Positions 24,210-41,373 of a stretch of DNA of 64,000 nucleotides are shown one piece after another (the stretch's first letter is position 1; the number at the start of each line of letters is the position of its first letter). Origin of the DNA: Microbacterium oleivorans (GTDB lineage: Bacteria; Actinomycetota; Actinomycetes; Actinomycetales; Microbacteriaceae); the NCBI RefSeq assembly GCF_001644225.1, contig NZ_LSTV01000001.1, positions 372,001-436,000 on the forward strand, read 5' to 3'. The notes beneath the pieces were generated by a model. It did no database searches and was not told the origin of the DNA. It was given only the letters and a program-made list of their open reading frames with translations. Both the position numbers and the translations under genes were made by a program.

Positions 24210-27200
24210 TTACGACTGCCGGCGAGGCGGTCTGAGGTCGATCGTCGGCACCGACTCACCGTCTACGCCGCGCTTTGCGAGCATGTCGACCATGTCCTCC
24301 TGGCGAGGCTGGCCCAGCGTCAACCGGTAGAGCGTCAAGGCGCTGCGCAGTCGCTCGTACTTGGCGATGTCGCGACTGAGTGGATACTGCGCGATCACGC
24401 GGTGAATGCGTGCAGAACCCGGGTAGAGCCACCAAGGGGAAAACTCGCCGAGCTCATTCTCGACGTCCGCTGCCGCATCGAAGGCGACCTGCCACGCGCG
24501 CACGTCGTCGGAGGCCAGCACATCGGGCCAGTGCGACTCAGCGACATTCTTGCGGACGGCGTGACCCGCGAAGCGGTTGACGCGGCCTTCGCGCTGCTCG
24601 AAGTCCACCGGATTCGAGGGGAGGTTCCAGTGCACAACGGAATGGCTCCACCAGTGAAAGTCGATCCCTTCCTGACCAACGCTGGTCGACGCAAGCACGA
24701 AGGGTGCGAACGGGCTGTTGAACGCGGCCCGCACCTCGGCCTGGCGCACCCCCGACGTGTCATCCGACTCGGTGGCGTACTTGCCGCCGTACCGCAGTGC
24801 GAAGCGCGCCATCATGGGAATCTCGTCACGTGCCGTCGTGTTGTCGCGAGCAACGTACCGGGCGGGGCGAAGCTCCATCGACTCGACCGTGCGGCGAGAG
24901 AGAGCCGCGAGCCCGGCATCGTCGAGGTCGCCGCCGCCTGTCTCGCTGAGTAACTGGTACATGTACTCGTCCATGACGGCCTGCAGGTTGCCGTCGGCGC
25001 AGTAGTCGAGCACGCTTCGCCAAAACGGTTGCTCATCGCCGTACAGCGTGACAAGCAGCGCGATCGATTCGGTGCGGTTGAAGAGCGTACGGATGCCTCG
25101 CACGAGTTCGAAAGCGGCAGCCCAGAGTCCGTCGGGGGTGACGCTGAGCCCGGCAACGGTGCGCAGTGCGCGCCACGCAATGTTGCCGGGCGAGTGGACG
25201 GCCATGCGTGCGAGGTCGGGGTGTGAGAGGACACCGTTCGACGACGGTTCCAGCGCCAGCCGCACGTGCTCCAGGAGGCCGCCGATGCGGCCCTCCTCGG
25301 CGCGAGACTCGACGAGCCGCTCTGCTGTCGCCGATTCGAGTTCTGCCGGCAGCATCCCGGGATATGCGAACACGGCCTCTGCAACCTGGTCCGTCTCCGA
25401 ACCTGTGGTGAGCTTCGCGTCGACGGTAGCGAGCAAAGTATCTGCCGCCACGGTCGCGCCGGCGGTTCGTGCGGCTTGCAAGGGATCACCGAGCTCGGCC
25501 AAGGCCGGGTGGGGCCAGAAAAGCGCGAGTGTCGACATTGCGGCCGGCCGGCCTTCCGCCAGCCGGTACTGCAGGCGTGCGCCGACCGCCTTTCGGGCAT
25601 CGGGTGTGTTCTCGCGGAGGAGCGCTCGATCACCCGCCGCGAGGCGGTCTGCCTCGTAGCTGAGCAATGATGCGATCGCGGTGGGTACTCCGGTCCAGGC
25701 CGAGAACACCACGTGCTTTGTCACGGATCCGTCCGACATTGGCGCATAGATCGGCCCGGGTTGGAGATACGGCATCGTCGGTGGGACCCAGAGCAGCCGC
25801 CACCACCCGCGCTCCAGCGTCTCGTCCGCGAGTGCACGCAGATGTCCGTTGCCGAGGTCGACCGGATCGAACGAGGCGACCGCGCCCGCCTCGAGCGACC
25901 GAGTCGTCGCGAGAAGGGAGCCGACGTTCTCCGCGTCGGGTCCATCCAACGCGGCTTTGACGCGATCTGCCGCCTTGTAGCCATCCATGAAGCTGGCGAA
26001 GTAGGGAATCGACTTCCAATACTCGAGGTCGATCGGCGAATCGACGGTGCGCCCAAGGGCACGCAAAGATGCCCACTCACGGAGGTCGGCCGCGGTTGGG
26101 GATCCGGTAGCCAAATGCCGCACGGCGACGAGATCTTCGCGCTCACCGATGGGCGGTCGCTCTGACCTGATCATGAGCGGTGTCAGTGCCTCGCTGACAC
26201 GGCGAGCCGAGGCAGCCGCGTCACCCCCGACCACGAGTGATTGGCGGTACGTCGCAAGCGCCGCGGCAACCTCTCTTTCGGCCCCGGGTGCCCCGCCCGC
26301 AAGGAAGCGCACCGTCGCGAGGAAGTCCTGATAGTGGTCGTCCTCGGCGTCGTCGCTGTTGGTGAACGGCTTGTACGGCGTTGCTGAGAGCAGCAGAACC
26401 TTCGCGTCGGGATGCTCGAACAGAGCGTGGGCGAGTTCGGCGGCGTCGCCGGACTGTGGGTTGAGCAGGTGCCGGAACCGTTGGAACTCGTCGAGGATGA
26501 TGAGGTCCGGCTCCAGAGTGTCGACACCGGCCTTGGCTAGCGACTGGCGAAACTCGGCGATGAGGTCGTGGTTCCGATGCCAGAGCTCGCCCGGGACAGA
26601 CTGCTTGCGTCGAACCTCGTCGCGGAGCGCGATAAAGCGGGCAAGGGAGCCGTCCGCCTCGATCATGCGAGTGAACGCTGTCACGATCCGCGGGTCAGGC
26701 TCACCAGCGAGTTCGCGCAGCAACGGCTGGACATACCACTGGTCGAACCGCTTGGCCGTCTTCACGGTGCCGTGCATCAGCAGACGCGTGACCCGTCGGT
26801 CCGAGTCGGTGCGGTTCGCGATCCTGTCGAGAATCACGGTCAGCATCGCTCGCTCTGGCGCTGACCCCTGCCGCCACCCGCCTTCGCTAAAGGACGTACC
26901 CGGTGTGAACGAGACGAGGTTGACCTTCTTCCCGGCATCCGATGTCTTCTCCGACAGGCGTCGGCTTTCCTTCGCCAGCAGCGTGAGACGGGTGGCCATG
27001 CCGATGTGCTTATCGCCCGTCACGTTCAGTCGGCGCAGGTTCTGGGTCGCTAGATCGACGTTGCTGCAGACGTAGACGATGTCGATGCGGTCGACGTGGT
27101 CAACATCCTGCAGGTGCTCGATCGCCTTCGCGATCACACCGCGCGCGACGATACTCTTGCCGAGTCCTGTTTCGTCAGCGACGAGAAAGCGACCGGATGC

Positions 27201-27305
27201 ATCACCGGACGCGACACCATAGAACCGCTCGATGACGTGATCGACGGCATCTCGCTGAAAGCCCTTCAGCCCCGCGATGACCGCGTCGACGTCGACAGTG
27301 CTCAC
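24210..27305 (-). CDS. SNF2-like superfamily 2 helicase of a defence module
   Basis: A 1031-residue helicase. Motif I is ADETGLGKS (residues 43-51), motif II is ILDEFQRF (DEFQ 272-275, a variant of DEAH), motif III is LLLSATPYKPF, motif V is QEGIDFHWWSHSVVHWNLP and motif VI is QREGRVNRFAG (near 903). The separated halves and the DEFQ variant place it with SNF2/HepA-like ATPases such as the DrmD and DpdE type proteins. GTG is the start because it overlaps the PLD gene stop (GTGA); the frame upstream is a shadow. It is the last of four overlapping minus-strand genes. It likely moves on or remodels DNA for the nuclease partners; the partner assignment is inferred. Confidence 0.88.
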   Translation of the reverse strand: MSTVDVDAVIAGLKGFQRDAVDHVIERFYGVASGDASGRFLVADETGLGKSIVARGVIAKAIEHLQDVDHVDRIDIVYVCSNVDLATQNLRRLNVTGDKHIGMATRLTLLAKESRRLSEKTSDAGKKVNLVSFTPGTSFSEGGWRQGSAPERAMLTVILDRIANRTDSDRRVTRLLMHGTVKTAKRFDQWYVQPLLRELAGEPDPRIVTAFTRMIEADGSLARFIALRDEVRRKQSVPGELWHRNHDLIAEFRQSLAKAGVDTLEPDLIILDEFQRFRHLLNPQSGDAAELAHALFEHPDAKVLLLSATPYKPFTNSDDAEDDHYQDFLATVRFLAGGAPGAEREVAAALATYRQSLVVGGDAAASARRVSEALTPLMIRSERPPIGEREDLVAVRHLATGSPTAADLREWASLRALGRTVDSPIDLEYWKSIPYFASFMDGYKAADRVKAALDGPDAENVGSLLATTRSLEAGAVASFDPVDLGNGHLRALADETLERGWWRLLWVPPTMPYLQPGPIYAPMSDGSVTKHVVFSAWTGVPTAIASLLSYEADRLAAGDRALLRENTPDARKAVGARLQYRLAEGRPAAMSTLALFWPHPALAELGDPLQAARTAGATVAADTLLATVDAKLTTGSETDQVAEAVFAYPGMLPAELESATAERLVESRAEEGRIGGLLEHVRLALEPSSNGVLSHPDLARMAVHSPGNIAWRALRTVAGLSVTPDGLWAAAFELVRGIRTLFNRTESIALLVTLYGDEQPFWRSVLDYCADGNLQAVMDEYMYQLLSETGGGDLDDAGLAALSRRTVESMELRPARYVARDNTTARDEIPMMARFALRYGGKYATESDDTSGVRQAEVRAAFNSPFAPFVLASTSVGQEGIDFHWWSHSVVHWNLPSNPVDFEQREGRVNRFAGHAVRKNVAESHWPDVLASDDVRAWQVAFDAAADVENELGEFSPWWLYPGSARIHRVIAQYPLSRDIAKYERLRSALTLYRLTLGQPRQEDMVDMLAKRGVDGESVPTIDLRPPRRQS

Positions 27306-29104
27306 GCGTGACCTCCGGTCAGGTCGAGGTGCGCTGACCAGACCTGACTCCACAGCTCATCGAAGCCGTCGGGCAGTACGGCGTCGTGGTCGTGCTCGCG
27401 CAGGTAGTCGATGATGCGCCGAGCGTCGGCGAGTCCGTGGTGGCCCTCGCCGACGGCGCGTACGAGTGCCTCGAACAGACCGGTGCCGGTGCCGGAGGCA
27501 TGCGCGGTTCCGAAGAAGCCGGCCACGCCGGAGTTGGATGCCGTCAGCGCCCACGCACCGGACAACTCCAAGAGCAGCGTCAGGAGGCGCACGAACGACG
27601 AACGGTCGGTGAGCTGGCGCGCGATGATCGCATCGTGCCGGCTCTCGACGTCGTCGAGCAGCCGTGCGAGAACGATGGTGCGACGCTCGTTGCCGGCGAC
27701 GTCGCGAGCGACCAGAACAACGAATGGGCTGATGTCGGCGAGCGGAATCCCCTCAAGCAGGACGCCCTCTGATTCGGACGCGCTGATGATGCTGCTTCCC
27801 AGGTCGGGACGAGTGAGCAGGTGCCACCGCACCGAGACGTCGCCGGCGCGACTGGTCAAGGCCGACGTGACGGAATCGTCCGCCCATACCCGCAGCGCGT
27901 ACGGATCCGCGGGGAGCGCGCGGGCGGAGAAGCGCGCACCCGCGAGCGCGCGCACAAGGGCTTCGAGCATGCGCGCCGCCTCCTCTTTGGCGTCTGGCTC
28001 ACTACCTCCCGTGGTGGCGTACTCCTGCTTCAGCTCACCGAGGGCGTCCAGGGTTGCCTGCACCCCGACCTTCGGGATAGGTCCGACGAACTCGACCATC
28101 ACCTCGACATTGCTCTGCCAGCCGGCATCCGTTGCGTTCGCAGACCCCAGGAACACGTGAGCGCCGTCCAGACGATCGACGACGACGGCTTTCGCATGCA
28201 GGCCCGCAAGTCGGTCGCCGGGAGGGACGAACCCCCCGTGGTCGTCAGCGTCGTCCGGGGAGTAGGTCGCGGCTTCGTCCAATACGTACGTCGAGAGCTT
28301 GGCATCGAGGGAGCCAGGCAGCAGTCGGTCGAGGCTCTCGGCGCGTGAGAGAACGTGCGTCTCCGTGCGAACGCCGGACCGCAACGTCCGCAGTCCGTCA
28401 TCTGACAGGAAGGGTGACATGATCAGCGCGCGCTTGCCGTGCAGGTCGGGCGCGGTGGCGCTGGGCACCCCGAAGACGTGGAACACGATGCTGCGCATCG
28501 GATCGGGCTGCTCCCAGAGGATGTTGCGCCAGCGCTCAGCCAGCTCGTCGATGCGTGCCCACCGGTTGGGATCGAGATCGTGCACACCGAGAGACGGCAA
28601 TCGGCGCAGCAGCTCGACAAGTGGACGGTTCACCGCGGCGGCTTCGCGCTTCTGTCCGTCGGCCGCGGGCTCACCGTCGAGGCGCACGATGACATCCCAA
28701 CTGCGGTCGGCCGTGAGATTGCGGCTCGCGCACAGAAATCGGTAGGCGGTGCGCTCGCCCGCGCGATACTCCAGGAACCACACCTTGGGATGGAAGAGGC
28801 CGCGGCGGAGGGCAACGGGGTGCACCATCGGCTCGAGGAATGCGACGAGGTCGGAGTGGGCGCCCATCGAGATCTCGCCAGCCTGCGCGAATACGTCCAC
28901 GCGGTCGGCGGCGCGGCGAATCGCGTCGAGAACGCCGAGCGTGTCGTCTTGTGCTGACAGTCGATGCGAGGCGAACGACAGCGGCACCGCGAGCGCGGTG
29001 GCCAGGTCGAGCGTGAACGTGGTGCCGACAGCATGCGAGAGCTCGAATCCCGTAGGCGGCTTGAGCTGCTCGGTGAGGGCCGCGCGAGATTGTGGCTCAA
29101 GCAT
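27302..29104 (-). CDS. PLD-superfamily protein with two HxK motifs
   Basis: A 600-residue phospholipase-D-fold protein. Repeat one has FHPKVWFLEY then SRNLT (His 105, Lys 107, Asn 129); repeat two has LHAKAVVVDRLDG then GSANAT (His 303, Lys 305, Asp 310, Gly-Ser 320-321), a canonical HxK(x4)D(x)nGSxN. PLD-fold nucleases occur in DISARM (DrmC) and Dpd (DpdK) next to helicases. The C-terminal 250 residues have no known domain. It overlaps the DUF6361 gene by 8 bases upstream and the helicase by 4 bases downstream, so it is translated with both. Confidence 0.88.
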   Translation of the reverse strand: MLEPQSRAALTEQLKPPTGFELSHAVGTTFTLDLATALAVPLSFASHRLSAQDDTLGVLDAIRRAADRVDVFAQAGEISMGAHSDLVAFLEPMVHPVALRRGLFHPKVWFLEYRAGERTAYRFLCASRNLTADRSWDVIVRLDGEPAADGQKREAAAVNRPLVELLRRLPSLGVHDLDPNRWARIDELAERWRNILWEQPDPMRSIVFHVFGVPSATAPDLHGKRALIMSPFLSDDGLRTLRSGVRTETHVLSRAESLDRLLPGSLDAKLSTYVLDEAATYSPDDADDHGGFVPPGDRLAGLHAKAVVVDRLDGAHVFLGSANATDAGWQSNVEVMVEFVGPIPKVGVQATLDALGELKQEYATTGGSEPDAKEEAARMLEALVRALAGARFSARALPADPYALRVWADDSVTSALTSRAGDVSVRWHLLTRPDLGSSIISASESEGVLLEGIPLADISPFVVLVARDVAGNERRTIVLARLLDDVESRHDAIIARQLTDRSSFVRLLTLLLELSGAWALTASNSGVAGFFGTAHASGTGTGLFEALVRAVGEGHHGLADARRIIDYLREHDHDAVLPDGFDELWSQVWSAHLDLTGGHA

Positions 29105-30314
29105 CCGTCATCTCCGATGTGCGTTCGAGACCGTCATGGATGTCGAGAAGGATGCCGCGTACCTGCGGCCACCGATACACCAGCGCGCCCGCGCCGGAGC
29201 TGCCGCCCCAGGTCGCGAGGCGGGCGCGGTTGCCGAGACGTGCCTGGGCGCCCTTATGCTGCCGCTCGCGTCGGGTCATGAAGGCGCGGGCCGCTGCGCT
29301 GTCGACAAGCACTTCGATTCCCTGCTCGACGAGGAGATCGCGCCAACCCCGGACGAAGCGACGGGAGTTGAGGTTGATCGGTGAACCTCGCGTCAGCTCG
29401 ACTCGGGCGAGCAGTGCGTCGAGGTTCCATGTCGTGAGGTCGACCATCGAGGGAAGTCCGTCGGACCACTGGGTGAGCCGTTCGCGGAACCCCTCGCTCG
29501 GATCGCTGAGTCTGTCGTAGCCAGCATCCCGATACTCCTCGGCGAGCAGCAGGTTGTAGAGCAGCTGCGCGCCGTGCATTAGGGCCGAGAACGCGCGCGC
29601 ATCGGCGAGCATCTCGTGGGCTTCGCCGTCGACGGCGAGAGCGGCGGCGTCTGCCCACGGCGCCGGGCTCTCGCCGGTGGGGCGTTCCACGGCGAGGTGA
29701 GCGAACAGCGATCCTGCTGCCTCGTCGAGGATCCGGTCACGCAACCACGCGGCTTCGTCCGGCCGCAGCGCGAACCCGTCGGGGATCGACTTAGGAAAGC
29801 CTTCGGGAGCCGAAGGCAGCGTCGTCGACCATGCGTGGAAGCGGCTGTCAGACGTGTCGCCGAAATCGTCGCCGGAAGTGCTCATTCCGTCGAGTCGGAG
29901 GGCATCGTCGCGCGACAGTGAGGCATCGGTGAGGACGCGGTAGTGGCGCAGCATCGACCAGTAGATCGCTGAGGGGAGGTTCTTCAACGCCTCGCCGGCC
30001 TGCATCCCGAGGAGTCCCGCGTAGTCGCCCGAGTCCTTCACCGCGTGGATGATGTCGCGTTCATACCGGTCAGCATCCGCCGCGGGGTTCGGGCGCCGTG
30101 AGGCCTTCTGGTACGCCCACGGCACGAATAGCAGATACCGCGCACGGGTGAGCAGCGTTGACGTGCCAGGGAAGAGCGAGTCCGCGATCGTGTCTCGTAT
30201 CTGGCCGAGGCCGAGTTCATCGCGACTCTCGCGCTCCGAAAAGAGACGGATGATGTCGCGCATGCGGCGCTGTTCTTCGCTCGACGCATCGAGCCACGCG
30301 ATGAGGGAGGCCAT
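29097..30314 (-). CDS. DUF6361-family protein
   Basis: A 405-residue protein that matches from memory the DUF6361 family, whose N-terminus (SLIAWLDASSEEQRRMRDIIRLFSERESRDELGLGQIRD) and PGTSTLLTRARYLLFVPWAYQ block are characteristic. The family has no known activity but is met in putative defence loci with helicase and PLD genes. The C-terminal part (INLNSRRFVRGWRDLLVEQG, then GSSGAGALVYRWPQVRGIL) shows no nuclease motif. Its start shares a base with the stop of the upstream gene, and its end overlaps the PLD gene. Confidence 0.82.
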   Translation of the reverse strand: MASLIAWLDASSEEQRRMRDIIRLFSERESRDELGLGQIRDTIADSLFPGTSTLLTRARYLLFVPWAYQKASRRPNPAADADRYERDIIHAVKDSGDYAGLLGMQAGEALKNLPSAIYWSMLRHYRVLTDASLSRDDALRLDGMSTSGDDFGDTSDSRFHAWSTTLPSAPEGFPKSIPDGFALRPDEAAWLRDRILDEAAGSLFAHLAVERPTGESPAPWADAAALAVDGEAHEMLADARAFSALMHGAQLLYNLLLAEEYRDAGYDRLSDPSEGFRERLTQWSDGLPSMVDLTTWNLDALLARVELTRGSPINLNSRRFVRGWRDLLVEQGIEVLVDSAAARAFMTRRERQHKGAQARLGNRARLATWGGSSGAGALVYRWPQVRGILLDIHDGLERTSEMTDA

Positions 30315-30889
30315 CAGTTCTCGGACGATAGCGGACGAAGTGAATCTGTGGCGTCGAGGACTTTGAGCGTGGCTAACACTGCACTGTCGCGGTATTGCTT
30401 GGATCTCGCGGCCTGGCGAACGGCCTGCAGAACGCTGCGGGCGTCATACACCTTCACAACGCCACCGCCCACGTGCTGTTCCGCCGCCCACGCACGGATG
30501 GTGGATTCGCTGGCAGGGGTTGAGAGCCGCCGAGCATAAAGCCGCAGCTCGATCTGGTCGAGGTCGTAGCCGAACCGCTCTGCGGCTCCCTTGACCACGC
30601 TCTCGCGAACGTCGTCCTGATTCAGCAGGGCGTACCACTTGGAATAGGTTGCGTCGTTGCCCAACACGTGGTCGGCGGCTACTCCCTGCGAGCCGAAGAA
30701 CGACTTCACCGTCGCGAGGATTAGCTTGTCTCGGCGCGCACCGACGAGGTCGACCTCGAATCCGTGCGTCCGGTATTCGTCGTACGCCTGCTTGCGGGTC
30801 CTGCGGCGCACGTTGAACTTGAGTGCGCTCGACACAACGAGGCCCTCCGACTCCATCGCAAGCGCCACGAACTGTTCGAATGCTTCCAT
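30314..30889 (-). CDS. PD-(D/E)XK-like protein, first gene of the minus-strand module
   Basis: A 191-residue protein. A restriction-nuclease-like core is visible: Tyr/Phe-rich strand, then FEVDLVGARRDKLILATVKSFFGS (Glu 45, Asp 47, then Thr-Val-Lys 60-62). The pattern D-(x)12-xVK fits the PD-(D/E)XK fold, but the usual Glu/Asp of the second motif is Thr. Whether it cuts DNA is thus open; it may only bind it. The C-terminal half holds a helical domain. GGGGAG precedes the ATG. It leads the four-gene minus-strand operon and is divergent from the gene at 31023, with 133 bases between them. Confidence 0.72.
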   Translation of the reverse strand: MEAFEQFVALAMESEGLVVSSALKFNVRRRTRKQAYDEYRTHGFEVDLVGARRDKLILATVKSFFGSQGVAADHVLGNDATYSKWYALLNQDDVRESVVKGAAERFGYDLDQIELRLYARRLSTPASESTIRAWAAEQHVGGGVVKVYDARSVLQAVRQAARSKQYRDSAVLATLKVLDATDSLRPLSSEN

Positions 30890-31022
30890 AGCTCCCCGTC
30901 GCCACGATAGCGGCTCGGCACGACACATTGACGATCCATGCGAACCCGACCCGCCGCCTATTGATACGCCGCTCCTCGCGGCCGCAAACGACCCGCTAGC
31001 CTTACAAAGGGGAAAGGTAGCT

Positions 31023-32555
31023 ATGTCAGTTGCACTGGGAGGCGGCACCAGCGCTGTGGCCGCGTCGACGCATGCTGCGTGCGCGCGGTTCCGTGGCACC
31101 GATCCGATGATCACGGGCCGGGCACGCCGCACGCTGGCGGCGCACCTCGGCAAGCCCGACAGGGGGGCGGGCATCCCTGAGGCGCGTTGGATGCGTGCCA
31201 TGGTGTTCGAACGTCTCGTCCGGGACGAGCGATTCGCGTCGCAGATCGCCACTCGCTCCGTGGGTGAGCTCGGGCTCGACAGGCCAGAGTCGGTCGTCAT
31301 CCGTGACGCACGCACCGACGTCACGACGATGGCAGCAGAGTTGCTGGCCGCGCACGACCGCGCCGTGGAGCATTCCGCCGCAACGCTGATTCATCGTGCT
31401 GCGGTTCCGTTCCCGGGATTCGAGGATGCCGCGGCGACTGCGGTGCTCCCCGACTTCATCGTGGTGGCACCAAAGGTCGCGCCCGACACAGGCAGTTGGC
31501 TGGTCGCCGGTGACGCGAAGGACTACGAGCGGGTGCGTTCCCGGATTGAGGAGATGCATGCGGTGCTCGACGGGTACGCCGTCCGATTCAAGGGCAAGCT
31601 CGATGACGCCGTCACCGAGATCTGGAATGTGCACGGCCAGAGCCTCGTCGGCTCCCGCGGAACGACGAAGATCACCTACGACGATTTCGTGGAACGAGCG
31701 GACGACCGCGCGATCGGCGTCGCCTTCGACTTCGCGAAGAAGGTGTTCGGCGGCGAGCTGGCGACGTCGTACCTCAAACACCACGCTGGAGACGCCGACG
31801 ACCTTCGCGACTCCTACGTCACGACCGCGACGCTCGCCACGGTAAAGGAGATTCGCGAGCGGCTCGACGGTGAGGCGAACCAAGCAGCGGCCCAACTGTT
31901 CGACCATCACCGCGTCGCGATTCGTGGGCTGAGCGACGAGCGGCAGCAGATATATGAGGACATTCGCGCCCTCGCCGCCGACCCGCAGCTGACAGCGCTG
32001 CGGCGCCCGCGCACGCGCGTCGAGGGGTTCGCTGTGGCAGATCCGGACGGGTTGCTCGAACAGGTCGAGGCGCCCGTGGTGCGGAAGCACCTGATGTCAG
32101 ATGCCGCCGGTGACTTCCCGATTGGCTCGCTCAACGTGTGGGAGCAGGAAGTCGTCGGCACTGAGATCGCGCGGGTGGATTCCCTCGCCTGGTATCGGAA
32201 CCCGTCACGCCCGGCCGTGGACTCCCTTGGCGTGGTCTACCGCGACGACGTGGGCAACTGGCGCTCCATGCATCCGGACTTCCTCTTCTTCAACGAGGTC
32301 GGCGGCGAAGTGAAGGCGTCGATCGTCGACCCGCACGGTCATCACCTCGCGGACTCGGTGGTGAAACTGCGCGCGCTCGCCGACTTCGCCCACGAGTTCG
32401 GCGACCGGTTCCACCGCATCGAGGCTGTCGCCAAGGCGGGCGGCAAGATGAAGGTGCTCGATTTGAAGGACCGTGACACGCGGTCGGTCATCCGGGCCTG
32501 GGAGGGGTCCGTGGAGGGACTGTACTCGGAGCCCGCGGCGCGCACCTACGTCTAG
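31023..32555 (+). CDS. Protein with two PD-(D/E)XK-like motifs
   Basis: A 510-residue protein, first of the plus-strand module. Near residues 143-168 it has LPDFIVV then GSWLVAGDAKDYERV (Asp 144, Asp 164-Ala-Lys 166), a canonical PD...DxK nuclease motif. Near 417-440 a second block, HPDFLFF then SIVDPHGHHLADS, resembles the Res-type nuclease of type III restriction enzymes (which read IVDPKG), but the Lys is His 438. The ends of the protein show no other domain. An AAAGGGGAAAGG site precedes the ATG. It is separated by 23 bases from the next gene. I infer a nuclease or DNA-recognition part of the system. Confidence 0.75.
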   Translation: MSVALGGGTSAVAASTHAACARFRGTDPMITGRARRTLAAHLGKPDRGAGIPEARWMRAMVFERLVRDERFASQIATRSVGELGLDRPESVVIRDARTDVTTMAAELLAAHDRAVEHSAATLIHRAAVPFPGFEDAAATAVLPDFIVVAPKVAPDTGSWLVAGDAKDYERVRSRIEEMHAVLDGYAVRFKGKLDDAVTEIWNVHGQSLVGSRGTTKITYDDFVERADDRAIGVAFDFAKKVFGGELATSYLKHHAGDADDLRDSYVTTATLATVKEIRERLDGEANQAAAQLFDHHRVAIRGLSDERQQIYEDIRALAADPQLTALRRPRTRVEGFAVADPDGLLEQVEAPVVRKHLMSDAAGDFPIGSLNVWEQEVVGTEIARVDSLAWYRNPSRPAVDSLGVVYRDDVGNWRSMHPDFLFFNEVGGEVKASIVDPHGHHLADSVVKLRALADFAHEFGDRFHRIEAVAKAGGKMKVLDLKDRDTRSVIRAWEGSVEGLYSEPAARTYV

Positions 32556-32578
32556 AGAGCTGCGGATCGGGAATCGAC

Positions 32579-35500
32579 ATGGTGGTCGTCACAAACGAGA
32601 TCTTCGATCAGTGGGAGCGCGACTGGCGCAAGCGCATGGTCGGCTGCTCGCTCGTGGCCGAGGCGAACGTCGACCCGGAGGAAGCGTTCGCAGCATTCCG
32701 CATTTATGGGCTCAACTGGGTTCGGCTTCCGTCGGCCGGCGAACGGACACGCCTCGCCCGTAGCTACCGTGCCGTTCTGCTCGCGGGCCTCTGCGCGGTC
32801 GGCGCGCGCGACTACGACGCGGGCAACTACTGGGACCACGTCTTCGCAACCTTCGACGCGTCGAGCGATGGGAACCGGCAGGCGGAGCTTGCGGAGTCAT
32901 TCCGATACGGACTGCAGACCTTGGGGCTCTCGCGGTTCACGCTGCCCACGCGGCGGCACGTCGGCGAGATCCTGCTCCATGGCGGCATCCCGATCAAGAG
33001 CACCGGGCAGTTCGCGAAGGTGCTCGCACGCTGGGATGCGCAGAATCCCTCCGGCGATGCACGCAGCTTCGTGTCCTGGATCGCCGCGTCTTCCCAACGC
33101 GTCGCGATCTCGCGTGGCATCGACGTGCCGACCTGGCTCTTCCTCACCGAGACCGGGGAGATCGCGGAGGACTTCGTCGAGCGGTGCCTCGTCGCAATCG
33201 ACGAGCTCGGGCACCCGACGGCGGCAGACACAGGGCTGCCACCTGCGATCCTTCGGGAGATCTCCGATGCCCTGGGAGAGAGCAGGCCCGGCGCGCGCCG
33301 ACGGGACAGGAGTCGGCGGCCCGTCGATTCGGCACCGTCAATCTCGTTCTCACCCCAGCGGGGAGTGCAGGTGCAGCTGCCGCCGCTCGAAGCATTCACC
33401 GAGTCGGACGTGGAGTGGGTCGTGAGTGCCGACGGGATGGGCGCGCGCGTCGAATCTCCGGCGCCCTGGCCGGGTGACCCCGTCGCCTCCAAGTTCGTGA
33501 GCGTCCGTGCGCCCGTCAAGCGTGCTGTGGTCCAGGTCTCCCCGTCGGATCAGACGTGGGATCTCGACGTCGTCGACGTCGACGATCCACTCCTCGTCTT
33601 CGACGGCGATTCCCGGCAGCTCATTCCCGCGCGCAACACCCTGCCTCGCGGGCGCGTGTGGGTCGCCTTTCCAAACGAGAGCGATGGCGCCATCGCAGAT
33701 CGACTGAGTTCTGACTCGCCGCTGGTCGTCGTCGAAGAGGCTCCGGCGCCGAACGGCTGGCACGGGTGGACCTTCGCCGCGCTCGACCTCTCGGCGGCTG
33801 CCAGACTGTCGCTCGCCGACGCCACGCGGGCGCGGTACGTGTCCACGATTCGGCGCCCGCGGCTCATCGAAGGCGCCCGCATTCCACATCTCGAGACGCG
33901 CGACGGGCGCCCCGTGCTCGACGCCCCGCCGCTCGTGGAGTTGCCCGGAACGGGAAGCGAAGGGACCCTCGACTGGCGCGTCTCGATCGCATCCGTCGCC
34001 GGCGACGTGGTGGCCGTTCAGGAGTTCACCGTCGCAGGCGAGTCGCGGACTGTCGATGCGTGGCCCGAGGGAGCCGGGCCGATGCTTGGCGACTTCATCA
34101 TCACGGTTCGCGGGCCCTGGGGTCGTGGAGCATTCCTCAGCGCAGCCATCGCGCAGGGCGCATCGACGGAATCCTCGACCACCTTTCGATGGATGCGGTC
34201 GGACGGGCAGGGCCTCGAGGACGCCGAGTTGCTTGTGCGGGCGGGGGAGACAGGTGCTCCGGGCACTCGGCTCGCGTTCGAACCTCGTCGTTGGCGCCGC
34301 GCGGTCACATTGCGGTCATCGACGGGCGAGCTCGAGCTCACGGCCCGGCTCCCCTCGATGGCAGTCAGTGCCGTCGGCGCGATCTCACGGGGGAAGTCCG
34401 GCGGCCCGATCCCGCTCGACCTCGAGCTTCTGCGTGATACCACGCTGCGCGTCGATGTGCCTCGCGGTACACGCCACACACAGCTCGCCGCAGTCGCCGC
34501 CGACCGATTGGTACAGGCGATCGACTCGAGCCAGCAGACGGGTGAGTCGCGGGTCTTCTCGCTCGGCAAGTTGAGCGACACGCTCCAGGCCCATCGTTTC
34601 GCGCAGCTTCGGCTGGTTGTGGATGATCGCTCGATTCCCGTTGCTTATGTGAGGCCCCAGTTGCTCGCGTCGGGCGCGACGGTCACTGACGGCGTGCTGT
34701 CGCTCGAGGAGGCGCAACCCGTTGAAGGGCTCATGGCCCTCGCATACCCGCGCTACGCCCCGTGGCAGAAGCCGACGCGGATCGACTTCGCGGCGGGTGC
34801 GACCAGTGCGACGGTTCCCGAGGAGGTGCTCCGTGAGGGCGCCGCGACGTTCGTGGTCTACGTCGCGAACCCGTGGGTGCCATTCGACGTGCCGGATCTG
34901 CCCGACTGGTCGACGCGCAATGCGTTCATCGCCGAATGGGGCGACGCGGTCGAGCCCATTGACGAGCCCGAGTCCGGTTTCAGAAGCTGGCTCGCGGGCC
35001 GTGGGCCGTGCCCCGCCTCGGACACGAGCTTGTACATCGCGCTGAACATATACACGCTGGTGCCGAGATTCGCGATGCGACGAGATGTCGACCGGCTCCG
35101 CAGCGAACTCGCAGAGTCGGTCCGATCGAGCCGCGTTCATGTCGTGGATGCGGTGCTGCGTTCGCAGGCTGACGCGCACGACCTCTTCCGGCTTTTCGTC
35201 GAAGCAGACGTCGTGAAGGTTCCCCGCGAGGATTGGGAGTCCTCAGACCTGCTGTGGTCTTTCAGTCCCGCCCTCGGGATCGTCGCCGACAGCGACGAAC
35301 ACATCGGCGAAGGTCGAGAGCAGTTCCGCGCGAACCTGACCACCTACGCCGGGGACCCGGCCCTGACGATCCTCGACGATGGAGTCGACTCGTTCGCGGC
35401 GGTAGGCAGGTTCGGGCCCAATGAGCGAGCGCTCGATCGGATGCCCCAAGACCGCATCGATGCGATCATGGCGGTCGCCAACCTCCTCCCGCAGGGTCTT

Positions 35501-35887
35501 CTGGATAGGGACTCGCGCGCGCAGGCGAGCAAGCAGCTGTTCGACGCGAGGCGAGATCGTGCAATGGAGGCGGTGATCGCGGTGTCGCGAGGGCTCATCG
35601 CTGAAGCGCGCGCGGCCGTCACGTCCGACATCGGCGACTACGCGACCACTCCCATCGACGTGCGGGCCAGCGACGAGGGGTGGATGAGTCTGCCTGTGCT
35701 GTCGCTGGCATGCGCCTTCGTGGCCAGGAGCGCTGCGCGAGGCGGCTCCGCATCCGGCCGCACATTCATCAAGCTACGGAAGGCCTACATGCGACTCGCA
35801 GAGGCTGCCCCCGGCATCGTCCAGCAAGACCTCGGCCTCGCCGAGCTTTGGATCACGAGGTGGAACGAGAATGACCGCAGCAATTGA
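32579..35887 (+). CDS. Large unknown protein of the defence module
   Basis: A 1102-residue protein with no domain I recognise. Residues 1-240 are mainly helical (WERDWRKRM, CAVGARDYDAGNYWDHVF). A basic linker (RRRDRSRRP) near 245 separates them from about 550 residues of predicted beta-rich sequence with several sandwich-like repeats (WTFAALDLSAAARLSLADATRARYV, MLGDFIITVRGPWGRGAFLSAAI, LRLVVDDRSIPVAYVRPQLL). The last 280 residues are helical again (VPREDWESSDLLWSFSPALG). It has no nuclease, helicase or methylase motif. Gene order makes it a partner of the helicase, whose start overlaps its end by 17 bases. A role as a scaffold or recognition subunit is a guess. Confidence 0.75.
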   Translation: MVVVTNEIFDQWERDWRKRMVGCSLVAEANVDPEEAFAAFRIYGLNWVRLPSAGERTRLARSYRAVLLAGLCAVGARDYDAGNYWDHVFATFDASSDGNRQAELAESFRYGLQTLGLSRFTLPTRRHVGEILLHGGIPIKSTGQFAKVLARWDAQNPSGDARSFVSWIAASSQRVAISRGIDVPTWLFLTETGEIAEDFVERCLVAIDELGHPTAADTGLPPAILREISDALGESRPGARRRDRSRRPVDSAPSISFSPQRGVQVQLPPLEAFTESDVEWVVSADGMGARVESPAPWPGDPVASKFVSVRAPVKRAVVQVSPSDQTWDLDVVDVDDPLLVFDGDSRQLIPARNTLPRGRVWVAFPNESDGAIADRLSSDSPLVVVEEAPAPNGWHGWTFAALDLSAAARLSLADATRARYVSTIRRPRLIEGARIPHLETRDGRPVLDAPPLVELPGTGSEGTLDWRVSIASVAGDVVAVQEFTVAGESRTVDAWPEGAGPMLGDFIITVRGPWGRGAFLSAAIAQGASTESSTTFRWMRSDGQGLEDAELLVRAGETGAPGTRLAFEPRRWRRAVTLRSSTGELELTARLPSMAVSAVGAISRGKSGGPIPLDLELLRDTTLRVDVPRGTRHTQLAAVAADRLVQAIDSSQQTGESRVFSLGKLSDTLQAHRFAQLRLVVDDRSIPVAYVRPQLLASGATVTDGVLSLEEAQPVEGLMALAYPRYAPWQKPTRIDFAAGATSATVPEEVLREGAATFVVYVANPWVPFDVPDLPDWSTRNAFIAEWGDAVEPIDEPESGFRSWLAGRGPCPASDTSLYIALNIYTLVPRFAMRRDVDRLRSELAESVRSSRVHVVDAVLRSQADAHDLFRLFVEADVVKVPREDWESSDLLWSFSPALGIVADSDEHIGEGREQFRANLTTYAGDPALTILDDGVDSFAAVGRFGPNERALDRMPQDRIDAIMAVANLLPQGLLDRDSRAQASKQLFDARRDRAMEAVIAVSRGLIAEARAAVTSDIGDYATTPIDVRASDEGWMSLPVLSLACAFVARSAARGGSASGRTFIKLRKAYMRLAEAAPGIVQQDLGLAELWITRWNENDRSN

Positions 35888-38800
35888 CCCGGTAGCAGTA
35901 TCGGCGACCGTCTCGAGCGCGTACCGCCGCTATCTGCGTTCGCTGGTGACGCCGAGCGACGCCGAGATCGCGATCGCACTGAACCGTGCCATCGAAGCTG
36001 AGGCGACGCAACAGCTCGTGAAGGGCCCCTATCTCGAGGCGACACCGCCGTTCGTCAAGGGCGCCGCCCCCGCCGACCTCATCGCCGAGGGCATCCTGTG
36101 CAAGAGCTTCGCCTCAGTCGCGTCGTCGTCGTTTCCCCTCGATCGGCCGCTCTATTCGCACCAGGAGTCATCGATCCGGGCGATTCACAGCGGGCGGAAT
36201 GTCGTCGTCGCGACGGGAACAGGATCGGGCAAAACGGAGAGCTTCCTCCTCCCGATCGTCGACCGCCTCTTGCGTGAACACGAGGCGGGCACGCTCGGCG
36301 CCGGGGTGAGAGCGATCCTGCTCTACCCGATGAACGCACTCGCCAACGACCAGCTGAAGCGGCTGCGCTCACTGCTCGCGAACACCCCGCAGATCACCTT
36401 CGGTCGCTATACCGGCGACACCGAGCAGACCACCGAGTACGCGCGGAAGCGTTTCAGCAAGCAGTTCCCGGGGCAGTCCATGCTGCCGAACGAACTGCTC
36501 AGCCGAGAGCAGATGCGTGAGACGCCGCCGCACCTCCTCCTCACGAACTACGCGATGCTTGAGTATCTCCTGCTCCGCCCTCAAGACATGGAGCTGTTCG
36601 CGTCACCCGGCGGCAAGAGCACGTGGCAGTTCATCGTCGTGGATGAGGCGCACGTGTACGACGGGGCCTCCGGCGCGGAAGTGGGGTTCCTTCTTCGCCG
36701 ACTTCGCGAACGCGTTGGCGGAAGCGCGGGCATCCAGGCGATCGCCACGAGCGCGACCGTCGGCAACGACGTCGCACGAGCCGCGAAGTTCGCCGAGGAC
36801 CTGTTCGGGCTACCCTTCGCCACGGGCGAGAACGGGCCCGCCGATGTGATCACCGCGCGTCGTGTGGAATTCGGGGGGACGCCGACGTGGGGTCGGTTCA
36901 GCTCGGAGGAGCTGGCGACGGACTCCGCTGACATGCTGCTGGCCGCTGCTCGGACGCGCGGAAGCTCCGCGACCGATATCGCCGGTGCACTGATCGGCGA
37001 GGAACGGCTTGCGGGGATTCGCTCCCTTGCGGGCGACCGAGCCCGCACCGTCGGCGACATCGCTCACCGACTCGACCCGGCCGCGCCGCCGTCGGTGGAC
37101 GAGATCACGCGGTTGGTCACCTGGGGGGCGAGTCAGCGCACCACCGACGGAGAGCCCGTGCTGTCGGCGAAGTACCACTTGTTCGCCCGCGCGACCGAGG
37201 GTGCCTTTCTCTGCCTGTCACCCGATGGGCCGCACGTGACACTCAGCCGCCACGAACGCTGCGCGACCTGTGGCTGGCAGGCGTTCGAGATGGCCGCGTG
37301 CCAGATGTGCGGCGCCGTCCACCTCGTGGGCTCGGTGGAGATCACCGGCAGGACGCGGCGGATCTCGCCCAAGAGCGGCGATGATCAGCGAATCGCGTGG
37401 TTCTCTCTCGGGGCCGGTGACGAAGCCGAATTCGACGAAGACGTCGTGCTGCTCGACGAGCAGTCCGGGCGCGCAGGAGTAGGCACGGGAACGGTGGTGG
37501 CGCTCTGCCCGCGGTGTGGTGGCCTGAGCCAGAACGTCGGCAGTCCCTGCACGAACGCAGACTGCGGGGGAACAGCCACACGCACGATCGTGCAGGTCGG
37601 CCGTTCGGTGGAGAGTCCACGCAAGTGCGTGCACTGCGGCGGAAACCGGCCGCGGTTGATCCGTCGATTCGAGAGCGGCAATGACGCCTCGGTGTCGGTG
37701 CTCGTGACTGCGCTCTATCCCGAGCTTCCGGCGGCATCTGCGGACCAGGTGAACCTGCCGGGTGGCGGCCGCAAGCTGCTCGCCTTCAGTGACAGCCGCC
37801 AGCAGGCAGCCTTCTTCGCCCCGTATCTCAAAGACACCTACGGAAGGCTGCTGCAGCGCAGGATTCTCTACACAGCGATGCAGAAGGGTCAGTTCGGCGG
37901 CAATGCGGCGGCCTGCACCGACATCGCCGCGCTCACGAGCAATCTCGCATCGCAGGCGGGCGTGTTCGATGCCTCGGAGACGGAGCTCACTCGACAGCGC
38001 ACGGCAGAGACCTGGCTGCAGGCGGAGCTCATGGGTCTCGATCGGCGAATCTCCCTTGAGGGAGTCGGTTTGGTCGCTTGGAGACTGCGCGATCTCGGTG
38101 AGTTACCGCTGATGCCGCCGCTGACGGCTCTGGGGCTCAGCCGCGACGAGATTCGCGCGCTGTGCCAGACGCTCCTGGACTCCTTGCGGCATCAGGGCGC
38201 CGTCGCCGGACTCGAGTTCGTCAACTTGCAAGACGAGATCTTCGAACCGCGCCTCGGCCCGATCTATGCCCGAAAGCACGGCGCCGACGCAAAGAAGAAG
38301 ATCCTCAGCTGGGTGCCCACGCGCGGGCGGAATGCTCGGTCCGACTACTTCGGGCGGGTGCTCGCAGCGCTCGGGGCGGACCCCTCGAAGGCCGACGACT
38401 TCCTCGGCGGCGTCTTCGACGCTCTCACGCACCCCGCAGCTGCGACCGCAGCCTGGTTCGAGAGGACGATCGACCCGGTGCTGGGTGAGCTGGTGCGGCT
38501 GAACCCACGCATGTTCGAGGCGCGACTCGTCACCGGGGCAGACGCCGTGTGGCGCTGTGCGGTATGCCGTGCAGTGACCGCCGAGGACGTCCGCGGAGTT
38601 TGCCCGACCTATCGGTGCACGGGTTCGCTTGAGCCGTGGGCGCCCAGGGAGGAGCACGACGACGATCACTACCGCACCATCTACCGACGGCTCGTCCCGA
38701 TACCCCTGTCGGCGATGGAACACACCGCGCAGTGGAGTACCGAGCGGGCCGCAGAGATCCAGCAGGACTTCATCGACGGTCGGGTCAATGTGCTTTCATG

Positions 38801-40529
38801 TTCGACCACGTTCGAGCTCGGTGTCGATGTCGGAGAACTGCAGTCCGTCGTCCTGCGCAACGTACCTCCCACCGTGTCGAACTATGTCCAGCGGGCCGGT
38901 CGCGCCGGCCGGCGGTCAGACAACGCCGCCCTCGCGCTGACCTACGCGCAACGGCGGCCGCACGATCTCGCCGCGTTCGCGCGCCCCGAGCAGATGATCA
39001 GCGGCGCAGTGCGGCCGCCGGTGGTGCCCATCGACAATGACCGAATCGCCGAGCGGCACATCTACTCAATCGCCCTCGCGCGGTTCTTCCGGGAGCAGCT
39101 GGCAAGTGCCGGGGCCATATATCGAACGGTGGGCGACTTCTTCGACAGCCCAGCCGGTCAGCCGACGGGCGCTGACCTATTCGCGGACTTCGTCGAGTTT
39201 CCCGACACCCAGCTTCAGGCTGCGATCGACGATGTGCTTCCGGCGTCCATCCGGGGCACCGACCTGACGAAATGGGATGGGTGGTCACGCGATCTGCGCG
39301 AGCTGCTCATCGCCGTTCAACAGGAGCACCGAGAGGAAACCAAGTTCTACGAGGAGGAGTCCCTTGCTGCCTACCAGTCGCGCAAGGGTTTCCTCGGAGA
39401 CCGCTACGGTCGCATTCTCGACACGATCCGAAGCGCACCTCTTCTTGGTTACCTTGCGAACCACAACCTCATCCCGAAGTACGGATTCCCCGTCGACACA
39501 GTCGAGATGAAGCCACCGCTGGGTGCGCCCGGTTCGGCATCCGATCTCGATCTCACCCGAGATCTGTCTCAGGCCATCTTCGAGTACGCCCCGGGCGCAG
39601 CCATCATCGCGGGCGGACAACTGTGGACGTCAGCGGGAGTCGCGACGCGTCACAACCGAGAGTGGCAGCCGTTCTTCTTCGCGACGTGCGAAAACTGCGG
39701 TCGGTACTGGGAGAAGCTCGGCGAGGATCTGGGCGGATGTCCGGATTGCGGCACGGTTCCCGACGGCGCGCGGCGGAAATACATGGAGCCGCGTTTCGGA
39801 TTCGTCACCTCGCCCTCACCCGGGAAGCCCGGTGACGCGCCGCCGCGCACGAGCTGGCGGGGCGAGACCCATGTGGCCGAGCCTGGCAGGAGCACCTCCA
39901 AGCGGACTCTCACGCTCGGTGGCGTCCCTGTCGAGTGCGAGGTGCAGGAGCGTGCGCGGCTGGTGCGACTGAATCTCGGCCCGGGCGAGCTTGGATACCG
40001 TCTGTGCGAGTGGTGTGGCGCGGGTGTCACGGCGCTCGGCGAGGCGCCGAAGTCGCACGTCAACGTGCGCACCCAGAAGCCGTGCGGCGGTCACTTCCAC
40101 CCATGGACACTCGGCCATCGGTACGAGACTGACGTTGTGCGGATCGCCCTCGGCGTCCCGTGGGCTGGATCCACGGTCGGTGAGCGTCGAGCCATGGCGT
40201 ACTCCGTGCTCTATGCAGTGCTTCAGGCCGTGAGCGAGTCTCTCCAAATCGCGCAGGACAACGTCGACGGCTCGGTCGTGGGAGGCCTCGCCCACGGGAT
40301 GCCCGAACTCGTGCTCATAGACACAGTGCCCGGCGGCGCGGGCTACGCGATCCTGATCGCCGAGAACATGGAGTCGGTTCTGCGGCGCTCGCTCGAGATC
40401 GCCGCAACCTGCGAATGCGGACCGGAGACGAGCTGCAGCTCCTGTCTTCGGACCTACTCGAACCAGAAGTGGCACAACCAACTCTCACGCGGCGCCGCCG
40501 AGGTGTACCTGGAGCGGCTTATGGCGTGA
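35871..40529 (+). CDS. YprA-type DEAH helicase with DUF1998
   Basis: A 1552-residue superfamily 2 helicase. Motif I is ATGTGSGKT (about 114-121), motif Ia LLYPMNALANDQLKR, motif II DEAH (258-261, VVDEAHVYDG), motif III TSATV, motif V FELGVDVGELQSVVLRNVPP and motif VI QRAGRAGRRSD (about 1007). Several zinc pairs occur: CATCGW and CQMCG, CPRCGG, CVHCGG, CAVCR, CENCGRYW and CPDCG. The C-terminal DUF1998 module reads LIDTVPGGAGYA and then CECG plus CSSCLRTYSNQ. The layout is that of the YprA/MrfA family, which in DISARM, Dpd and Druantia carries the core motor. Here it ends the plus-strand operon. A family role in antiviral defence is known; the mechanism in this locus is not. Confidence 0.92.
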   Translation: MTAAIDPVAVSATVSSAYRRYLRSLVTPSDAEIAIALNRAIEAEATQQLVKGPYLEATPPFVKGAAPADLIAEGILCKSFASVASSSFPLDRPLYSHQESSIRAIHSGRNVVVATGTGSGKTESFLLPIVDRLLREHEAGTLGAGVRAILLYPMNALANDQLKRLRSLLANTPQITFGRYTGDTEQTTEYARKRFSKQFPGQSMLPNELLSREQMRETPPHLLLTNYAMLEYLLLRPQDMELFASPGGKSTWQFIVVDEAHVYDGASGAEVGFLLRRLRERVGGSAGIQAIATSATVGNDVARAAKFAEDLFGLPFATGENGPADVITARRVEFGGTPTWGRFSSEELATDSADMLLAAARTRGSSATDIAGALIGEERLAGIRSLAGDRARTVGDIAHRLDPAAPPSVDEITRLVTWGASQRTTDGEPVLSAKYHLFARATEGAFLCLSPDGPHVTLSRHERCATCGWQAFEMAACQMCGAVHLVGSVEITGRTRRISPKSGDDQRIAWFSLGAGDEAEFDEDVVLLDEQSGRAGVGTGTVVALCPRCGGLSQNVGSPCTNADCGGTATRTIVQVGRSVESPRKCVHCGGNRPRLIRRFESGNDASVSVLVTALYPELPAASADQVNLPGGGRKLLAFSDSRQQAAFFAPYLKDTYGRLLQRRILYTAMQKGQFGGNAAACTDIAALTSNLASQAGVFDASETELTRQRTAETWLQAELMGLDRRISLEGVGLVAWRLRDLGELPLMPPLTALGLSRDEIRALCQTLLDSLRHQGAVAGLEFVNLQDEIFEPRLGPIYARKHGADAKKKILSWVPTRGRNARSDYFGRVLAALGADPSKADDFLGGVFDALTHPAAATAAWFERTIDPVLGELVRLNPRMFEARLVTGADAVWRCAVCRAVTAEDVRGVCPTYRCTGSLEPWAPREEHDDDHYRTIYRRLVPIPLSAMEHTAQWSTERAAEIQQDFIDGRVNVLSCSTTFELGVDVGELQSVVLRNVPPTVSNYVQRAGRAGRRSDNAALALTYAQRRPHDLAAFARPEQMISGAVRPPVVPIDNDRIAERHIYSIALARFFREQLASAGAIYRTVGDFFDSPAGQPTGADLFADFVEFPDTQLQAAIDDVLPASIRGTDLTKWDGWSRDLRELLIAVQQEHREETKFYEEESLAAYQSRKGFLGDRYGRILDTIRSAPLLGYLANHNLIPKYGFPVDTVEMKPPLGAPGSASDLDLTRDLSQAIFEYAPGAAIIAGGQLWTSAGVATRHNREWQPFFFATCENCGRYWEKLGEDLGGCPDCGTVPDGARRKYMEPRFGFVTSPSPGKPGDAPPRTSWRGETHVAEPGRSTSKRTLTLGGVPVECEVQERARLVRLNLGPGELGYRLCEWCGAGVTALGEAPKSHVNVRTQKPCGGHFHPWTLGHRYETDVVRIALGVPWAGSTVGERRAMAYSVLYAVLQAVSESLQIAQDNVDGSVVGGLAHGMPELVLIDTVPGGAGYAILIAENMESVLRRSLEIAATCECGPETSCSSCLRTYSNQKWHNQLSRGAAEVYLERLMA

Positions 40530-41354: not shown

Positions 41355-41373
41355 GTTCGAGTCCCTCCAGGGG
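41355..41373 (+). repeat. att repeat, distal side
   Basis: A 19-bp exact copy of the tRNA-Arg 3' end (GTTCGAGTCCCTCCAGGGG) with no tRNA around it. The sequence beyond it (TTGCTGCTCC...) would be the original chromosomal flank of the tRNA gene. Confidence 0.9.

What the first reader, a model, noticed from the sequence alone, without database searches (positions are those of the whole stretch)
24210..40529. Divergent seven-gene helicase/nuclease system with no methyltransferase
Seven genes lie in two head-to-head operons with overlapping or close-set coding sequences. Minus strand: PD-(D/E)XK-like, DUF6361, PLD, SNF2-like helicase. Plus strand: two-motif nuclease-like protein, unknown 1102-residue protein, YprA-type DUF1998 helicase. 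YprA helicase plus SNF2 helicase plus PLD is the shared core of DISARM and Dpd (established), but DISARM methylases, DpdA and the 7-deazaguanine genes are absent. A recent survey of YprA-family helicases describes further system types, of which ARMADA is one that I recall; this locus may be one of them or a new variant. Without a methylase, self and non-self must be told apart in another way.
Basis: partly seen in the sequence, partly recalled or inferred. Interest (0 to 1): 0.88.

Follow-up and report, generated by a model that had tools for sequence, protein, structure and literature searches.

The report
Two phage-defence modules in tRNA island
The stretch is not one new seven-gene machine but two separately known kinds of bacterial anti-virus module sitting side by side in what is probably a small genomic island, together with the leftover of two other genes fused into one.

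Summary
The seven reading frames are there, but they are not one system. The minus-strand trio (24210-30314) matches PADLOC's ZacA, ZacB and ZacC over nearly full length; Zac also occurs without Druantia neighbours elsewhere. The plus-strand pair (32579-40529) is a type III-like Druantia: a DruE helicase with no room for a C-terminal nuclease, plus an unannotated 1102-residue partner. That partner's family lies beside DruE in 77 of 80 related loci and in the same stretch in all 80. In a quick tree the window's DruE falls with these, apart from DruE linked to YjiT-type DruH. Three residues named for the experimentally tested M. smegmatis DruE match this branch (2 of 84 proteins, both of it), so that system probably belongs here; a phage tail protein triggers it, which would explain why no methylase is needed. 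g5 is an in-frame chimera of two unrelated gene fragments; g4 is a rare orphan. Zac lies near the pair in only 1 of the 80 loci, plus one sampled genome and the window, each time in a different arrangement. An exact 19-bp copy of the tRNA-Arg 3' end brackets the block; no empty site was found. DISARM, Dpd and ARMADA membership failed. New member of known kinds; modest interest.

The parts
24210..27353 (-). ZacC: SNF2-type helicase of the Zac module, 1047 aa
   Evidence: PADLOC ZacC over residues 20-1042, 1086 bits; helicase motifs at DETGLGKS, LDEFQRF and QREGRVNR, kept with small variants in 15 of 15 aligned rows, window included
27302..29104 (-). ZacB: phospholipase-D-type protein of the Zac module, 600 aa
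   Evidence: PADLOC ZacB 536 bits over residues 1-592; Pfam PLDc_2 E 2.2e-5, 24.7 bits, under the curated cut-off of 27; two HxK motifs (H105, H303), the first in 25 of 26 aligned rows, one row gapped; rows include second copies of one gene from overlapping loci
29097..30314 (-). ZacA: DUF6361 protein of the Zac module, 405 aa, mostly helical in the model
   Evidence: Pfam DUF6361 E 2.7e-52; PADLOC ZacA 415 bits; model pLDDT 83.2, no PDB match at E 0.001
30314..30889 (-). g4: small PD-(D/E)XK-like orphan, 191 aa; rare, not seen tied to Zac or DruE
31023..32555 (+). g5: chimeric reading frame, N-terminal part of a ~930-aa gene joined to the end of a type III restriction R subunit
   Evidence: its interior is missing in the nearest relative L033
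32579..35887 (+). g6: DruH-position partner of DruE, 1102 aa (helical ends, long beta-rich middle)
   Evidence: family member in 80 of 80 kept DruE loci, within 400 bp upstream in 77; AlphaFold2 pLDDT 89.1
35871..40529 (+). DruE: YprA-family helicase with MZB (DUF1998) end and no room for a C-terminal nuclease, 1552 aa
   Evidence: PADLOC DruE3 596 bits; Pfam DEAD, Helicase_C, MZB; 28 residues from the last MZB cysteine to the end; tree
22800..22872 (+). tRNA-Arg (CCT), presumed integration site
22851..22869 (+). left 19-bp direct repeat (tRNA 3' end)
41355..41373 (+). right 19-bp direct repeat, presumed right end of the island

Best explanation
The block is an 18.5-kb island, probably integrated at a tRNA-Arg gene, that carries two independent anti-phage modules. 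Module 1 is a type III-like Druantia: g6 takes the place of DruH and DruE is the helicase, here without a C-terminal nuclease. By analogy with the tested M. smegmatis pair, the DruH-like protein responds to a phage structural (tail) protein, binds DruE, and together they stop incoming phage DNA from circularising and replicating. Recognition would rest on a phage protein plus DNA structure, so no methylase is needed. Module 2 is the three-gene Zac module: a helicase (ZacC) and a PLD-type protein (ZacB), most likely moving along and cutting foreign DNA, with a helical protein of unknown role (ZacA). g5 is a fusion relic of two other genes and g4 an orphan. Shown here: family identities, conserved g6-DruE pairing, modular occurrence of Zac, chimerism of g5, the tRNA repeat. 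Inferred: all biochemical steps, any phage protection by this copy, and the integration event.
For: PADLOC ZacA/B/C and DruE matches. g6 family in 80 of 80 kept DruE loci, adjacent in 77. The tree puts the window's DruE with 38 g6-linked rows (39 rows, SH-aLRT 100), apart from three DruE next to YjiT-type DruH. A292, R823 and A1016, named for the tested M. smegmatis DruE (1667 aa), coincide in raw numbering with 2 of 84 DruE-like proteins, both g6-linked (L077, 1668 aa; L089, 1549 aa), and with none of 3 DruH-linked or 2 ARMADA-type ones. That pair and the window pair both overlap by 17 bp. Six of seven non-self genomes with all three Zac genes detected show no g6/DruE pair in the stretch fetched. 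Zac is near the pair in 1 of 80 loci (L055). g5 halves match different proteins. 19-bp tRNA repeat.
Against: g6 matches no DruH model: no Pfam, NCBIfam or PADLOC hit, and profile comparison with three YjiT-type DruH gives E 0.0069 but a probability of only 5.6%, over one 113-column stretch. Foldseek and VIA-align returned only common beta-sandwich folds. The M. smegmatis DruH sequence was not compared, its DruE residues V857 and R859 do not match L077, and its DruE has about 115 more residues than the window's, a tail of unknown nature. Eleven of 38 g6-linked tree rows have tails of 121-147 residues, one with an HxK motif (L067), so the branch as a whole is not shown to lack nucleases. My HxK pattern and Pfam also found no PLD in the DruH-linked DruE controls, so their silence proves nothing. 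No empty site was found; in the closest flank match (G931) similarity stops at 41466 and the piece holds no tRNA. The low-GC stretch starts near 20 kb, left of the tRNA. No integrase among the ORFs scanned. The tree program warned of long branches.
Confidence: 0.77

Rival explanations
1. Zac and this Druantia pair work together: the PLD-type ZacB and helicase ZacC supply the cutting step that the short DruE lacks.
For: The window DruE ends 28 residues after the last MZB cysteine, those beside Zac in L055 and G499 32 and 102, while three DruE next to YjiT-type DruH carry 404-413. ZacB is a PLD-type protein. Zac lies beside the pair in three lineages with three arrangements: divergent in the window, ZacABC-g6-DruE in tandem in Klenkia (L055), g6-DruE-ATPase-ZacABC in G499.
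Against: Zac is near only 1 of 80 pairs, and 6 of 7 sampled non-self Zac operons have no g6/DruE pair nearby. Many short-tailed DruE have no Zac in the stretch held. Three arrangements fit ordinary clustering of defence genes equally well.
Confidence: 0.1
2. One integrated seven-gene system.
For: Overlapping or close-set genes in two divergent operons on one bracketed block.
Against: g5 is a chimera without full-length relatives in the searches; g4 occurs without the rest in the one annotated plasmid opened; the two cores occur apart; the relative L033 with a 94%-identical DruE shows no Zac or g4 and lacks the interior of g5.
Confidence: 0.03
3. A variant of ARMADA, DISARM, Dpd, BRIGADE or TALON.
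For: They share YprA-family helicases, and some share SNF2 helicases and PLD nucleases (PMC12458937).
Against: No methylase and no ARMADA, DISARM or Dpd equivalog over its cut-off among the seven: DrmD, DpdE and DpdJ score 44 v 610, 49 v 500 and 84 v 800 bits. The tree keeps the window's DruE apart from the ARMADA-type rows. BRIGADE and TALON rows were not in the tree.
Confidence: 0.02
4. A decaying island: the modules no longer function.
For: g5 is a relic; the nearest relative L033 has g6 split into two frames; no integrase among the ORFs scanned.
Against: ZacA-C, g6 and DruE are open over full length, with helicase, HxK and Zn motifs in place and coding-type third-position GC.
Confidence: 0.05

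Closest known systems
Type III Druantia of Mycolicibacterium smegmatis, MSMEG_1253-1254 (PMC13316683: abstract, sections 2.1 and 2.3, passages)
   Same: Two genes in the same order with a 17-bp overlap; DruE with DExD/H, Helicase_C and DUF1998 and no further domain listed there; A292, R823 and A1016 coincide with g6-linked DruE L077 and L089. Partner of similar size, 1132 v 1102 aa.
   Different: The window's DruE is shorter (1552 v 1667 aa) and lacks the tail. The M. smegmatis DruH sequence itself was not compared; V857 and R859 do not match L077.
Zac (ZacA-ZacB-ZacC, PADLOC-DB 2.0.0)
   Same: Same three genes, order and close spacing; all three models match over nearly full length.
   Different: Here it shares an island with a Druantia pair and is preceded by an orphan gene. 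Origin and experimental basis of the label were not found: the 20 papers listed of 504 that hold its gene names were unrelated, and none holds DUF6361.
Druantia type III-like branch, 'III-B' (Bell et al. 2025 preprint, PMC12458937: sections 3, 4, 26)
   Same: YprA helicase on a branch apart from canonical type III; described there as most often without a nuclease domain.
   Different: The text does not describe the partner gene; 'DruH' occurs 0 times. The reference protein GIH50614.1 was not compared.
Canonical Druantia III (DruH of the YjiT family + DruE with two PLD domains; PMC13192584: section 13 and passages)
   Same: Large upstream partner with helical ends and beta-rich middle, DruE helicase core, position in the operon.
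   Different: No YjiT-model match, no room for PLD domains in DruE, separate tree branch.

Membership tests
Zac (PADLOC) | ZacA, ZacB and ZacC models matched by adjacent genes | tested here: met
   415, 536 and 1086 bits, nearly full length; adjacent and overlapping
Druantia (any type) | DruE helicase | tested here: met
   PADLOC DruE3 596 bits, best non-DruE model 107 bits
Canonical Druantia III | DruH of the YjiT/STY4851 family (NF038336) | tested here: not met
   no NCBIfam match for g6 at E 0.1, while M. parvus DruH scores 574 bits; hhalign weak
Canonical Druantia III | C-terminal PLD domains in DruE | tested here: not met
   by length: 28 residues after the last MZB cysteine, v 404-413 in three DruH-linked DruE; motif and Pfam tests do not count, since they miss the PLD in the controls too
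Druantia III-like ('III-B') | DruE on a branch separate from DruH(YjiT)-linked DruE | tested here: met
   39 rows on one side, SH-aLRT 100; quick method, long-branch warnings
Druantia III-like ('III-B') | conserved large partner gene directly upstream | tested here: met
   77 of 80 adjacent, 80 of 80 present; a feature found here, not taken from the preprint
Druantia III-like ('III-B') | grouping with the preprint's reference GIH50614.1 | not tested
   sequence not at hand under that accession
[quoted passage not shown]
   no methylase among the seven; ZacC fits BrxH models at only 30 bits
DISARM | DrmA helicase with separate DrmB (DUF1998) and a methylase | tested here: not met
   MZB is fused to the helicase; no methylase; DrmA and DrmD scores far below DruE and Zac
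Dpd | DpdA and 7-deazaguanine genes | tested here: not met
   none among the seven; DpdE and DpdJ far below cut-off; the rest of the window was not scanned for them

The most novel reading that the evidence does not exclude
Zac is the missing cutting arm of short type III-like Druantia: where DruE has no C-terminal nuclease, a separate three-gene Zac module supplies a PLD nuclease and a second motor, so that sensing of a phage tail protein by the DruH-like partner leads to DNA cleavage. The three independent Zac/DruE neighbourhoods would then be selected pairings, not chance.
Probability: 0.1. Interest if true: 0.6.

Novelty: new member of a known kind. Interest (0 to 1): 0.33.

Why it matters
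It shows how two known modules side by side can look like a new multi-gene system. It also ties a large unannotated protein family to the DruH role: g6 relatives are in 80 of 80 kept DruE loci, in Actinomycetota, Chloroflexota, Bacillota, Archaea and others, yet the window's member matches nothing in Pfam, NCBIfam or PADLOC, and two relatives nothing in PADLOC, so annotation that looks for YjiT-type DruH may miss it. The short DruE leaves a testable question: where does the cutting step, if any, come from?

Tried and rejected
Housekeeping origin of the helicase: rejected; it fits DruE at 596 bits against 142 bits for the DECH_helic model, whose cut-off is 874. No MrfA row was in the tree, so this rests on models, not on the tree.

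ARMADA/DISARM/Dpd membership: rejected (membership test).

g5 as a real two-nuclease component: rejected as the leading view, because 16 of 248 genomes matched it, own included, and only the own genome matched it whole. Its two parts keep coding-type GC, so a working fusion is not excluded.

Empty integration site: looked for with the right flank only, in 39 same-genus genomes, own included; 34 matched at E <= 0.001, many by short hits. Three matched loci were compared with the window and scanned; none held a tRNA. Left unproven.

Homology of g6 to YjiT-type DruH: profile comparison weak. Foldseek/VIA against PDB gave beta-sandwich folds; the solved DruH (9tud, in the sequence copy) is not among the rows shown. 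It is not known whether that library holds it, so nothing follows.

Nuclease in the tails of longer g6-linked DruE: Pfam found none in three, but found no PLD in two DruH-linked controls either; inconclusive.

Viral contigs: 9 YprA-family loci, 6 put in the tree; none fell inside the g6-linked group. DruH query: nothing. Plasmids: no g6 relative.

ZacA model: no PDB match at E 0.001.

Rows dropped: the tree used 36 of 80 genome loci and 6 of 9 viral ones; the g6 alignment used 47 of 63 hits of 950-1260 aa. Of 12 non-self genomes with a ZacA match, two lie on contigs under 5 kb and three gave only a ZacA fragment, leaving 7. One of the 6 without a pair (G284) has a 64-residue match to the MZB end of DruE about 9 kb from ZacA, a trace of some other YprA-type gene. 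L077 was chosen for comparison with M. smegmatis because of its length; one search is the control on all 84.

Failed or timed-out scripts.

Full report
What is in the sequence. The seven ORFs are present. Pfam, PADLOC and NCBIfam identify four: 24210-27353 (minus) is ZacC, 27302-29104 ZacB (PLD-type), 29097-30314 ZacA (DUF6361), and 35871-40529 (plus) is DruE with a fused MZB/DUF1998 end. The other three match nothing in these libraries at E 0.1. The two innermost frames are read too long: they overlap each other in antisense, and homologues support starts near 30889 (minus) and 31023 (plus).

The plus-strand core is a two-gene Druantia. A profile of the 1102-residue protein g6 finds a member in all 80, within 400 bp upstream of DruE in 77; in the other three it lies in the same stretch. 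In the tree (53 rows) the window's DruE and 38 g6-linked DruE lie on one side of a branch (SH-aLRT 100), three DruE next to YjiT-type DruH on another (100), and the ARMADA-type rows elsewhere; the method was quick and the program warned of long branches. The window's DruE stops 28 residues after the last Zn-binding cysteine, against 404-413 in the DruH-linked ones. This fits the 'type III-like' branch of Bell et al. (PMC12458937; sections 3, 4 and 26 read), described there as most often without a nuclease domain. The branch is not uniform: 11 of 38 g6-linked tree rows have tails of 121-147 residues, one with an HxK motif, and Pfam names no domain in three such tails; it also misses the PLD in two DruH-linked controls.

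What g6 is. The window's member has no match in Pfam, PADLOC, NCBIfam or PHROGs, and two relatives none in PADLOC. Its AlphaFold2 model is good (pLDDT 89.1, 47 sequences): helices at 6-232, mostly strands at 254-786, helices at 799-1101. That resembles the layout reported for the DruH structure, helical ends around a core with Ig-like domains and a beta-rich region (PMC13192584, section 13). Sequence support for common descent with YjiT-type DruH is weak (E 0.0069, probability 5.6%). Fold searches gave only common beta-sandwich matches. I therefore call g6 a DruH in position and probable role, not a proven homologue of the YjiT family.

The best functional evidence. Li and He (PMC13316683; abstract, sections 2.1 and 2.3, passages) tested an M. 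smegmatis DruH-DruE pair (1132 and 1667 aa, 17-bp overlap). [quoted passage not shown] The DruE residues named there, A292, R823 and A1016, fall on A, R and A of the g6-linked DruE of L077 (1668 aa), in the SAT motif, a PGRG loop and motif VI; V857 and R859 do not match. In raw numbering 2 of 84 DruE-like proteins fit all three, L077 and L089, both g6-linked; 0 of 3 DruH-linked and 0 of 2 ARMADA-type ones do. The window has A292 and R823 but S1016 in raw numbering, its motif VI lying a few residues earlier. The window pair also overlaps by 17 bp. So the tested system probably belongs to this branch, though its DruH sequence was not compared and its DruE has a tail that the window's lacks. The window's own copy is untested.

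Zac is a separate module. In the plasmid collection, ZacC relatives occur in 49 records, 39 of them with at least 80% of the query in one place. Five were opened: DUF6361-PLD-helicase stands without Druantia neighbours in the stretch shown in Cronobacter and Halomarina, beside a PD-(D/E)XK/UvrD pair in Bradyrhizobium and Shinella, and about 14 kb from a canonical DruH-DruE in Methylocystis. In genomes, ZacA was found in 8 of 396 (phylum sample) and 8 of 345 (class sample), both counts including the own genome and overlapping. Of seven non-self genomes with all three Zac genes, one (G499) has g6-DruE nearby. From the DruE side, Zac lies in 1 of 80 loci (L055, Klenkia terrae); 51 of the 80 hold both 10-kb flanks. 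The three neighbourhoods differ: divergent (window), ZacABC-g6-DruE (L055), g6-DruE-ATPase-ZacABC (G499).

The two odd genes. g5 joins residues resembling the N-terminal region of proteins of about 930-1100 aa (G213, G116, G050; 53-60% identity) to 333 residues resembling the end of type III restriction R subunits (50% identity on a Rhodococcus plasmid); apart from the own genome no match covers both. The ~930-aa gene stands near Zac in G213 and G800, so the island may once have held it. The nearest relative of the pair, L033 (Microbacterium sp. CSI-V, DruE 94% identical), lacks the interior of g5, shows no Zac or g4, and has g6 in two overlapping frames. g4 has one relative in 72,556 plasmid records and one in 247 other genomes of the order.

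The island. An exact 19-bp copy of the tRNA-Arg 3' end begins 826 bp after the DruE stop, and the bracketed block has 66.2% GC against 70.9% and 70.8% outside it. Against this, the GC drop begins near 20 kb, no integrase was found among the ORFs scanned, and no empty site was found.

How it most likely works. Druantia module: sensing of a phage structural protein by g6, contact with DruE, loading on phage DNA with exposed single strands, block of circularisation and replication. All steps are inferred from the two papers. Zac module: helicase plus PLD-type nuclease acting on DNA, inferred from motifs. Neither needs a methylase mark.

Verdict. Two known kinds of module in one probable island, plus a gene-fusion relic and an orphan. 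The seven-gene system is not supported. The most novel reading left open is that Zac supplies the nuclease that this DruE lacks.

Noticed in passing
L033-L112 (loci): 20 of 80 g6-DruE loci have a DrmD/BrxHII-like helicase (18) and/or an Eco57I-type methylase (14) nearby, 12 have both: an ARMADA-like pair next to type III-like Druantia. Families were checked on two helicases and two methylases only.
   Followed up: partly
L167:4864-9193; L169:3831-8429; by size and g5 match also L168:6978-11282: An unnamed two-gene pair: a protein of 888-983 aa (no family match in the two scanned) and one of 515-547 aa (weak AAA_19/AAA_30 matches in the two scanned); in L167 beside Zac. Possibly an undescribed defence module.
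   Followed up: partly
L005:16434-18386: An ABC/OLD-like ATPase of 650 aa sits between DruE and ZacA in G499.
   Followed up: no
   Followed up: partly
window 23148-24047, minus strand: ORF downstream of ZacC with a DnaJ-domain match (E 4.2e-7) near its middle; no relatives among the fetched loci.
   Followed up: partly
L033:6710-10017: The nearest relative of the pair carries g6 in two overlapping frames, so its DruH-like gene is broken or misread.
   Followed up: no
L007:5627-8226: In G585 the g6-DruE pair lies directly behind two genes that look like type III CRISPR Csm5 and a CARF protein (my reading of the letters; not tested).
   Followed up: no
L018:2853-3038: A 64-residue match to the MZB end of DruE about 9 kb from Zac in G284, trace of another YprA-type gene.
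   Followed up: no
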